From assembly GCF_003945595.2 (NCBI RefSeq), contig NW_024104096.1, positions 2,909,501 through 2,973,500 on the forward strand: 64,000 bases of DNA, read 5' to 3'. Below the pieces are notes generated by a model, which saw nothing but the letters and a program-made list of their open reading frames with translations, was not told the origin of the DNA and did not search any database. This document shows, in pieces, positions 14,543 through 16,054 of this stretch; position 1 is the stretch's first letter, and each line of letters opens with the position of its first letter. The DNA is from Pipra filicauda. Its lineage: Eukaryota; Chordata; Aves; Passeriformes; Pipridae. Made by a program: the position numbers and the translations under genes.

Positions 14543-15925
14543 TTTATTGAGGAAGGTCTCCATGCAGGGGGGCTCCAGCAGGAATGTTGAGGCCAGGGCC
14601 ACCCCTCACACACGTCATGACCGAGCCAAAGGGAGTCCCACAGGGCAGAGTCCTCCCTCCAGGACCCCAGGAGAGAAATGCTGGCTCGGTTCAGCCCTGC
14701 ACCCGGACAGGAGTTCTTCTCCTCGAGGTGCTGGATGTCACAGGGACCCTTGTATTTCCCCCTATCTGACCCTGGACCATGAACCTCCACACCTTGCAGC
14801 CAAGCCCAGGTGCCCATTGGGGTCCCCACCACAGGCCAGGCTGAGAATTAGGGTGCTGGTGGCAGATGCATGCAGGACACGTGGGCAGGAGAGGGCTCAG
14901 CAGTGTGAGAGGAAGGGTCCCGGTGGAGCTGCTCCACCAGGCACTGTCCCTGCATTGAAGCAGGTCATGGGGCAGTGCAGACAGGGAGCTGCAGCCAGGT
15001 ATGGGCAGGCTCTGCCAGGACTGGGCAGGGAGCCTGCCTCAGCCATGCCACAGCTTAGCCTCAACTATACTGGGCCATGCATGAGCCCGGGGCACATGGC
15101 ACAGGGGCAGGAGCCTGCCCAGCACTGCACCTCCCTGCCTTGGACACTGGGCTGGGGAGCTTTCTGGGTCCAGCTGGGTTTAGCACCAGGTCAGGGAGGG
15201 AGCAGAAGCAAGTGCCCAGTGTCATGGTAGTGCTAAAGGATGCTGCTGGCGAGGATGCTGCTGGCGAGGATGCACTGCCAGATGGGTGAGAGCATGTGGC
15301 CAAGGCTGGGGAGCAGCAACAGGCAGCATTTGGGGCAGGGCTGGGGAGAATGTATGGCACCATCATGCAAAAGAAGCGGCACCAAGGCTCTGCAGACACC
15401 CTGGGCAGTGGACACGCAGCAGCTGAGCCCACGCCGTAGCACCAAGAGCAGGGTGCCCCAAGGAGGGGGTGAAGCAAGAGCTCAGTGCCTGTGGTCATGG
15501 GGCTAAGTGTGCATCCCCCCCTTAGTGCTGCTGAGGGCTTTTCCAATCCCCTGACTCCCCGATCCATGGCAACAGGGCACTGCCACCTGTGGCTGCCCAC
15601 AGCAGGGCAAGCCCCATTCGCTTGGGGAAGGGACAGCAGCACCAAGAACACAGAGGGCTGCGGGAGCCCCTTGGCAACAGTTTGGCTCAGTGGGAAGCAC
15701 CTGGGATACCCCAGCACTAGCCCCTGCCCACAGTGGGTCCGATCAGGGCCAGACTCACTGTGGGGGGCATAGAGTAGATGGGGGTGGGCAGCCCCACCGG
15801 GTAGCCACAGCCTCCCCCTCCCGCTCTCCCTGGGCTCAGAAGCGGGTGCTCTGGTAGTGCAGCCTGCGGAGCTCGGAGAGGCCACTGTCCCGGCAGTACG
15901 AGTCCCTGCAGGGACTCCCTGCCAG
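14543..15925 (-). terminator. GOLGA7B: GOLGA7B 3' UTR and poly(A) signal
   Basis: On the minus strand the sequence after the GOLGA7B stop has no coding signal. It reaches aataaa (tttatt at 14543-14548 on the plus strand) about 1.4 kb downstream. A 15-base direct duplication (gatgctgctggcgag) near 15239-15268 is the only internal structure noticed. Confidence 0.65.
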
Positions 15926-16054
15926 TCACCGGCCCCCCGCCCCACCACCCCCACCGCTGCTGCTGCTGGAGCTGCCGCTGCTGGAGCTGCCGCTGCTGCA
16001 CCGGTCCTCGTAGATGGAGATCTCAATCTGGGCCCCGCTAAGGATCATCAGTGA
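15912..16054 (+). CDS. CRTAC1: Alternative distal CRTAC1 terminal exon, Ala-rich, antisense to GOLGA7B
   Basis: A ctgcag acceptor ends at 15911. Starting at 15912 in the phase left by exon 14, the frame reads GTPCQSPAPRPTTPTAAAAG, then further Ala/Gly, then APVLVDGDLNLG and a short tail to tga at 16052-16054. From memory, the long human CRTAC1 isoform ends in the same kind of Pro/Thr then poly-Ala segment followed by VLVDGDLNLG, so this is its counterpart. The spliced protein would be 657 residues. Bases 15926-16027 are also the last coding exon of GOLGA7B on the other strand. No plus-strand poly(A) signal was identified close by. Confidence 0.8.

What the first reader, a model, noticed from the sequence alone, without database searches (positions are those of the whole stretch)
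15912..16054. Codon-register antisense coding overlap between CRTAC1 and GOLGA7B
The last GOLGA7B coding exon (16027-15926) lies wholly inside the distal CRTAC1 exon, and codon boundaries coincide on both strands. GCT and GCC (Ala) on one strand read AGC (Ser) and GGC (Gly) on the other, so the CRTAC1 poly-Ala tract is the complement of the GOLGA7B Ser/Gly tail. Any length change in the repeat changes both proteins equally. The same pairing appears to hold in human, implying long conservation.
Basis: partly seen in the sequence, partly recalled or inferred. Interest (0 to 1): 0.75.

Follow-up and report, generated by a model that had tools for sequence, protein, structure and literature searches.

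The report
Exon coding on both DNA strands
A stretch of bird DNA about a hundred bases long can be read on both strands, as the end of GOLGA7B one way and an optional end of CRTAC1 the other; mammal proteins fit the same pairing, though use in birds is unproven.

Summary
The last GOLGA7B coding exon (16027-15926, minus) lies inside a CRTAC1 alternative last exon (15912-16054, plus), and 34 of 34 codons are in exact antisense register. Both exons join their genes in phase at GT/AG borders. Mammal proteins fit the same register: CRTAC1-A and GOLGA7B tails of related species could be encoded opposite each other at 38/38, 36/36, 38/38 and 36/37 codons. GOLGA7B's frame is older: its paralogue GOLGA7 has the same core, IEITIYEDR, so the CRTAC1 tail is the overprint. 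The arrangement matches the known TRalpha2/Rev-erbalpha overlap (PMC4569393), and the human gene overlap is mentioned in print (PMC10477339). Codon register itself is one of three options and stop-poor for a Ser/Gly tail. What is notable is the depth, mammal to bird. Against use in birds: a weak acceptor, no poly(A) hexamer found, no named non-mammal protein with this tail among those listed, and similarity that codon bias alone could partly give (P 0.0017 to 0.18). Verdict: a new member of a known kind; expression in birds unproven.

The parts
15912..16054 (+). CRTAC1 alternative last exon A (coding part, to stop TGA)
   Evidence: CAG acceptor, phase-1 junction with exon ending 12429, ORF to stop; tail shared with mammalian CRTAC1-A
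15926..16027 (-). GOLGA7B last coding exon, wholly inside CRTAC1 exon A; 34 of 34 codons in antisense register
16142..16243 (-). GOLGA7B coding exon 4
16392..16544 (-). GOLGA7B coding exon 3
16933..17058 (-). GOLGA7B coding exon 2
18185..18196 (-). GOLGA7B coding exon 1 (MATE)
4522..12429 (+). 13 shared CRTAC1 coding exons (4522-4709, 5917-6113, 7030-7160, 7785-7941, 8508-8642, 8940-9085, 9257-9393, 10042-10124, 10653-10753, 10838-11006, 11513-11658, 11791-11833, 12286-12429); start codon uncertain
   Evidence: 592-residue core identical to two Pipra filicauda entries, which have 18 more N-terminal residues that I did not place
12665..12777 (+). CRTAC1 alternative last exon B (hydrophobic C-terminus AQVAFFGGY...LYLCLYAL)
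   Evidence: AATAAA at 13279; B tails listed in birds and mammals
13606..14198 (+). CRTAC1 alternative end C: EGF2 exon 13606-13731 and EGF3 exon 14071-14198 (stop TAG)
   Evidence: AATAAA at 14269; C tails annotated in birds and a frog
14543..14548 (-). AATAAA, candidate poly(A) signal for GOLGA7B

Best explanation
This is an overprinted, alternatively spliced last exon. CRTAC1 (plus) and GOLGA7B (minus) are convergent neighbours. CRTAC1 has three alternative ends; the most distal one, A, reads through the complement of GOLGA7B's last coding exon. GOLGA7B's frame came first, and a splice acceptor in its 3' untranslated region let CRTAC1 use the opposite strand. The Ser/Gly tail was a ready template: in codon register every Gly codon reads Thr, Pro, Ala or Ser, and AGC/AGT Ser reads Ala or Thr, so in such a tail only TCA Ser can give a stop. 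The result is a Pro/Thr/Ala-rich tail without the hydrophobic B end, hence a soluble rather than membrane-bound CRTAC1. Each in-frame repeat change alters both proteins by the same number of residues. Shown: anatomy and register in this bird, protein-level fit in mammals, and that GOLGA7B is older. Inferred: the same register in mammal DNA, origin before the mammal-bird split, CRTAC1-frame constraint, soluble/membrane switching outside mammals, and any use in birds.
For: Register 34 of 34. In-phase junctions. CRTAC1-A tail in 12 of 241 held proteins: 11 entries from nine named mammal species and one unnamed bird-like ORF. Five of the 12 tails tested against a chosen partner: 38/38, 36/36, 38/38, 31/31 and 36/37 codable opposite, against shuffle means of 14.7-19.4 and maxima of 21-28; Ser opposite the GOLGA7B stop in all five. 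GOLGA7 chains in the PDB carry VIEITIYEDR (species not shown there), and fish and shark GOLGA7B have the core and a Ser-rich tail. Window matches macaque at 10 of 10 residues opposite IEISIYEDRC, P=0.0017 if codons are resampled. Human exons 15A/15B: A lacks and B has a transmembrane end (PMC4945026, passages). Codon mapping.
Against: No RNA or peptide from any bird was seen. No named non-mammal with tail A is among the 120 listed hits (birds, turtles, squamates and amphibians included), although 90% clustering can hide isoforms. Identity to the other A tails is 8 or 9 of 10 except Piliocolobus (10), with resampling P of 0.043 to 0.18, so the macaque figure is the best of 12. The A acceptor has 50% pyrimidine (tied lowest of 16 CRTAC1 acceptors, though CRTAC1 exon 4 and GOLGA7B exon 5 also score 50%) and competing AGs 9 and 15 nt upstream, both in frame. 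None of 13 poly(A) hexamers lies on plus from 16055 to 19059. Mouse gave only B (PMC4945026).
Confidence: 0.55

Rival explanations
1. Shadow in birds: the overlap is used only in mammals; in birds the antisense frame is merely held open and similar by GOLGA7B's constraint and GC-rich codon use, and the acceptor is coincidental or a relic.
For: TRalpha2 precedent: the antisense frame lacks stops in platypus and resembles the eutherian one without TRalpha2 expression (PMC4569393, section 5). 39% chance of openness, weak acceptor and no poly(A) hexamer, no named non-mammal A protein listed, and identity to 10 of the 12 A tails only marginal under codon resampling, P 0.043-0.18.
Against: Acceptor position, phase and junction residues match mammalian CRTAC1-A; 10 of 10 identity with macaque and Piliocolobus, P=0.0017 each. 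The same frame is open in an unnamed bird-like ORF, P0128, which however has no CRTAC1 core and shows no splicing. In marsupials the TRalpha2 shadow has stops, so shadows can decay.
Confidence: 0.38
2. The CRTAC1-A tail is an annotation artefact everywhere.
For: Several listed A entries bear names of computed annotation such as 'isoform X3' and 'LOW QUALITY PROTEIN'; repeats of this kind are often mispredicted.
Against: Human exon 15A and its expression in cartilage and lung are described in PMC4945026 (passages); the tail recurs in nine named mammal species, eight of them with one junction.
Confidence: 0.04
3. The exon is kept for RNA reasons (antisense pairing between the two 3' ends, or shared splicing elements), and the second protein tail has little function.
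For: Convergent overlap of exons; sense-antisense regulation is proposed for the TRalpha2/Rev-erbalpha pair (PMC4569393, passages).
Against: It does not explain retention of the frame, nor that the changes seen opposite IEISIYEDRC are few and mostly mild (N/D, V/I, P/A/T).
Confidence: 0.15

Closest known systems
TRalpha2 (THRA) / Rev-erbalpha (NR1D1) antisense coding overlap
   Same: Convergent neighbours; an alternative last exon of one is antisense to the last coding exon of the other; distal splicing changes the C-terminus (PMC4569393, passages and section 5; PMC3047299, start of abstract in listings only).
   Different: There the overlap is reported only in mammals and not expressed in marsupials or platypus; birds lack the core splice elements. 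Here marsupial entries carry the A tail and a bird has acceptor, phase and frame.
Human CRTAC1 exons 15A/15B (CRTAC1-A and CRTAC1-B)
   Same: Window exons A and B correspond to the mammalian A and B tails by sequence and junction.
   Different: The window also has a third end, C, with two extra EGF domains and its own AATAAA; bird expression of A unknown.
Known human CRTAC1/GOLGA7B gene overlap (PMC10477339, passage)
   Same: Same gene pair, reported there as overlapping ('head-to-tail').
   Different: That passage says nothing of coding overlap, codon register, direction of origin or conservation.
Frame-0 antisense ORFs (Iyengar et al. 2024, PMC11266595, abstract and sections 4 and 6)
   Same: Codons perfectly opposed; stops only opposite CTA, TTA, TCA.
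   Different: Theory and yeast/fly data on de novo ORFs; here an exon of an old gene in vertebrates.

Membership tests
Antisense coding overlap through an alternative last exon (TRalpha2/Rev-erbalpha type) | Convergent neighbouring genes | tested here: met
   CRTAC1 on plus 4522-16054, GOLGA7B on minus 18196-15926
Antisense coding overlap through an alternative last exon (TRalpha2/Rev-erbalpha type) | Alternative last exon antisense to the neighbour's last coding exon, frames open on both strands | tested here: met
   34 of 34 codons; alternatives B and C upstream
Antisense coding overlap through an alternative last exon (TRalpha2/Rev-erbalpha type) | Splice and poly(A) signals present | tested here: inconclusive
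   CAG acceptor in correct phase but pyrimidine-poor with competing AGs; none of 13 poly(A) hexamers within 3 kb downstream
Antisense coding overlap through an alternative last exon (TRalpha2/Rev-erbalpha type) | Both products expressed in this organism | not testable with these tools
   No RNA or peptide data available
CRTAC1 isoform A | Shared core, then a ..QSP...VLVDGDLNL tail without hydrophobic end | tested here: met
   (as encoded; not as an expressed product)
GOLGA7B | GOLGA7/ERF4 domain and IEISIYEDR core before a Ser/Gly tail | tested here: met
   92-100% identical to the first ten listed hits, all birds, which carry PF10256; GOLGA7 in PDB

The most novel reading that the evidence does not exclude
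Both tails have evolved as one double-coding unit since early tetrapods. The Gly run of the GOLGA7B tail (opposite the Pro/Thr/Ala/Ser-rich stretch of CRTAC1-A) is present in 48 of 48 named tetrapod tails and in 3 of 3 unnamed ones, and in 0 of 49 from fishes (100 of 120 listed proteins used; criterion chosen after seeing the tails). So part of GOLGA7B's sequence may be kept for CRTAC1's sake, in all amniotes or even all tetrapods, and the soluble CRTAC1 end may be made in birds too.
Probability: 0.1. Interest if true: 0.75.

Novelty: new member of a known kind. Interest (0 to 1): 0.45.

Why it matters
Antisense coding-coding overlaps are rare and overlaps are seldom conserved: 51 human pairs with overlapping coding regions among 13,484 human-mouse orthologues (PMC2335118, passages), and 9 exon/exon overlaps, coding or not, shared by human and chicken (PMC2151771, passages). 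A case where the older frame is known, the register is exact and the overlap spans mammals and birds would be a clean test of whether two proteins can be constrained by the same codons. It also shows why a Ser/Gly tail is a stop-poor template for a Pro/Thr/Ala-rich tail on the other strand.

Tried and rejected
Rejected: that codon register is itself remarkable (one of three options; a second plus frame is also open over most of the exon). Rejected: that openness proves coding (39% by codon resampling). Weakened on checking: the case for CRTAC1-frame constraint. My first figure (P=0.0015) used only the macaque string; repeated for all 12 A tails it is 0.0017 for two, 0.043 for four, 0.060 for one and 0.10-0.18 for five, so I lowered the best explanation from 0.6 to 0.55 and raised the shadow rival from 0.33 to 0.38. 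Considered: EGF3 as an upstream partner of exon A; it ends in TAG, not a donor, so A would follow EGF1 or EGF2.

Led nowhere: the window's own genome (genome search did not complete), so GOLGA7 in the same bird and other copies were not examined. No vertebrate DNA other than the window was obtained, so no dN/dS or synonymous-rate test was possible. No fish CRTAC1 was among the listed hits, so tail A was not tested in fish; a passage of PMC8536980 says the teleost duplicates are more like human CRTAC1-A, without speaking of the tail. Paper searches for a report of this coding overlap (also 7, 11, 25, 39, 40, 45 on related terms) gave one mention of the gene overlap (PMC10477339) and none of double coding in what I saw; I looked into eight papers by outline, section or passage, and at the rest only as listings.

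Dropped before counts: one search used 100 of 120 listed GOLGA7B homologues; the other 20 have predicted C-termini lacking the tail or running elsewhere. One search used 5 of the 12 A tails. Three partners were related named species; P0128 is unnamed and its partner (Lagopus) was one of three birds with a perfect fit; the macaque partner P0011 is unnamed and was my guess at a primate-like one, while rabbit fits 37/37. For the other seven, one search printed the best three of 51 GOLGA7B tails: Piliocolobus 37/37 (rabbit), Myotis lucifugus 38/38 (bats), Dama and Sarcophilus 36/37, three Manis entries 30/31 (birds; no pangolin partner held).

Full report
What is there. On the minus strand, 16027-15926 is the last GOLGA7B coding exon; on the plus strand, 15912-16054 is an exon ending in TGA. 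All 34 GOLGA7B codons, the stop included, are exact reverse complements of plus codons. AGC and GGC (Ser, Gly) face GCT and GCC (Ala); GGT and GGG (Gly) face ACC and CCC (Thr, Pro).

Gene models. GOLGA7B has five coding exons and an AATAAA on its strand at 14543. CRTAC1 has 13 shared coding exons from 4522 to 12429 and three alternative ends: B (12665-12777, hydrophobic end; AATAAA at 13279), C (two further EGF exons, stop at 14198, AATAAA at 14269) and A (15912-16054). The junctions use GT/AG and keep frame. The 592-residue CRTAC1 core is identical to two Pipra filicauda entries, so the bird is probably that manakin or a close relative; those entries have 18 further N-terminal residues that I did not place.

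Known isoforms. Human CRTAC1 has alternative terminal exons 15A and 15B; B has a transmembrane end and is reported in brain, A lacks it and is reported in cartilage and lung; mouse cartilage and brain gave only B (PMC4945026, passages). Tails fit: mammals show GTLGQSPGPRPTTPT...APVLVDGDLNL (A) and AQVAFLGGY...LYAL (B). That A is 15A follows because B is the hydrophobic one. Steck 2007 (glycosylated, secreted CRTAC1) was seen only in reference lists; O-glycosylation of tail A is recalled, not read.

Is it the same overlap in mammals? No mammal DNA was obtained, so I tested proteins. For each pair I asked whether some codon exists that reads as the GOLGA7B residue one way and the CRTAC1-A residue the other. 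Of 12 A tails among 241 held proteins, five were run against a chosen partner: Myotis/Eptesicus 38 of 38, Mirounga/Ursus 36 of 36, Monodelphis/Gracilinanus 38 of 38, unnamed P0128/Lagopus 31 of 31 (partner picked by fit), Macaca/unnamed P0011 36 of 37. Shuffled tails gave means of 14.7-19.4 and never reached the observed value in 5000 tries each; shifts of one to four codons gave 17-26. The residue opposite the GOLGA7B stop is Ser in all five, as TCA must be opposite TGA. The other seven tails gave 30/31 to 38/38 with their best of 51 partners.

Which frame is older. GOLGA7, the paralogue, is in the PDB with VIEITIYEDR, and GOLGA7B of sharks and ray-finned fish has the core and a Ser-rich tail. 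The GOLGA7B frame therefore predates the CRTAC1-A frame, which is the overprint. The Gly run facing the Pro/Thr stretch is in 48 of 48 named tetrapod tails (and 3 of 3 unnamed) and in 0 of 49 tails from fishes; the run was chosen as a criterion after seeing the tails.

How surprising. In this register antisense stops arise only opposite CTA, TTA and TCA (PMC11266595, section 6), and Gly codons always read Ser, Ala, Pro or Thr. With GOLGA7B residues fixed and codons drawn from 723 window codons, 39% of draws are stop-free. Opposite IEISIYEDRC the window peptide is identical to two A tails (Macaca, Piliocolobus) at 10 of 10 residues (P=0.0017 each), to four at 9 of 10 (P=0.043), and to six at 8 of 10 (P 0.060-0.18). 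These figures assume full synonymous saturation and the tails are related to one another, so they suggest constraint on the CRTAC1 frame but do not prove it.

Against use in birds. The A acceptor is pyrimidine-poor (50%; range over 16 CRTAC1 acceptors 50-94%; CRTAC1 exon 4 and GOLGA7B exon 5 also score 50%) and has AGs 9 and 15 nt upstream, both of which keep the frame. None of 13 poly(A) hexamers lies on plus from 16055 to 19059, whereas B and C have AATAAA. No named non-mammal among the 120 listed proteins has tail A (131 matched). The database is clustered at 90% identity, so an A isoform could be hidden behind a B or C representative. P0128 shows the frame open in a second, bird-like sequence but is an ORF without the CRTAC1 core. 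The precedent is a warning: the antisense frame of Rev-erbalpha lacks stops in platypus and resembles TRalpha2 without being used, while in marsupials it has several stops (PMC4569393, section 5).

Literature. The human gene overlap is mentioned in PMC10477339 (passage). I found no description of double coding in the searches. Base rates: 51 human pairs with overlapping coding regions (PMC2335118, passages); exon/exon overlaps shared by human and chicken (PMC2151771, passages).

Verdict. The best account is an overprinted alternative last exon: clear in anatomy, well supported in mammals at the protein level, probably older than the mammal-bird split, and unproven as an expressed exon in birds.

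Noticed in passing
15925-15836 (minus): GOLGA7B's frame stays open for 29 codons after its TGA stop (LAGSPCRDSYCRDSGLSELRRLHYQSTRF, then TGA at 15838-15836). A predicted Calidris pugnax GOLGA7B (P0100) ends in the same 26 of 26 residues, apparently reached by another splice; could be an alternative or readthrough C-terminus, or a conserved 3' UTR.
   Followed up: partly
15836-15928 (plus): The plus frame upstream of the CRTAC1 A acceptor is open and 20 of 31 residues match a predicted pangolin CRTAC1 (P0130), in which this stretch is part of the protein.
   Followed up: partly
13606-14198: Third CRTAC1 end with two extra EGF domains and its own AATAAA; annotated in many listed birds and a frog, not seen among the mammal tails listed.
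   Followed up: partly
16028-16054: CRTAC1 tail A continues past the overlap through the GOLGA7B acceptor into its intron; this end differs between groups (GPAKDHQ here, GSAVKENCEPSC in macaque).
   Followed up: no
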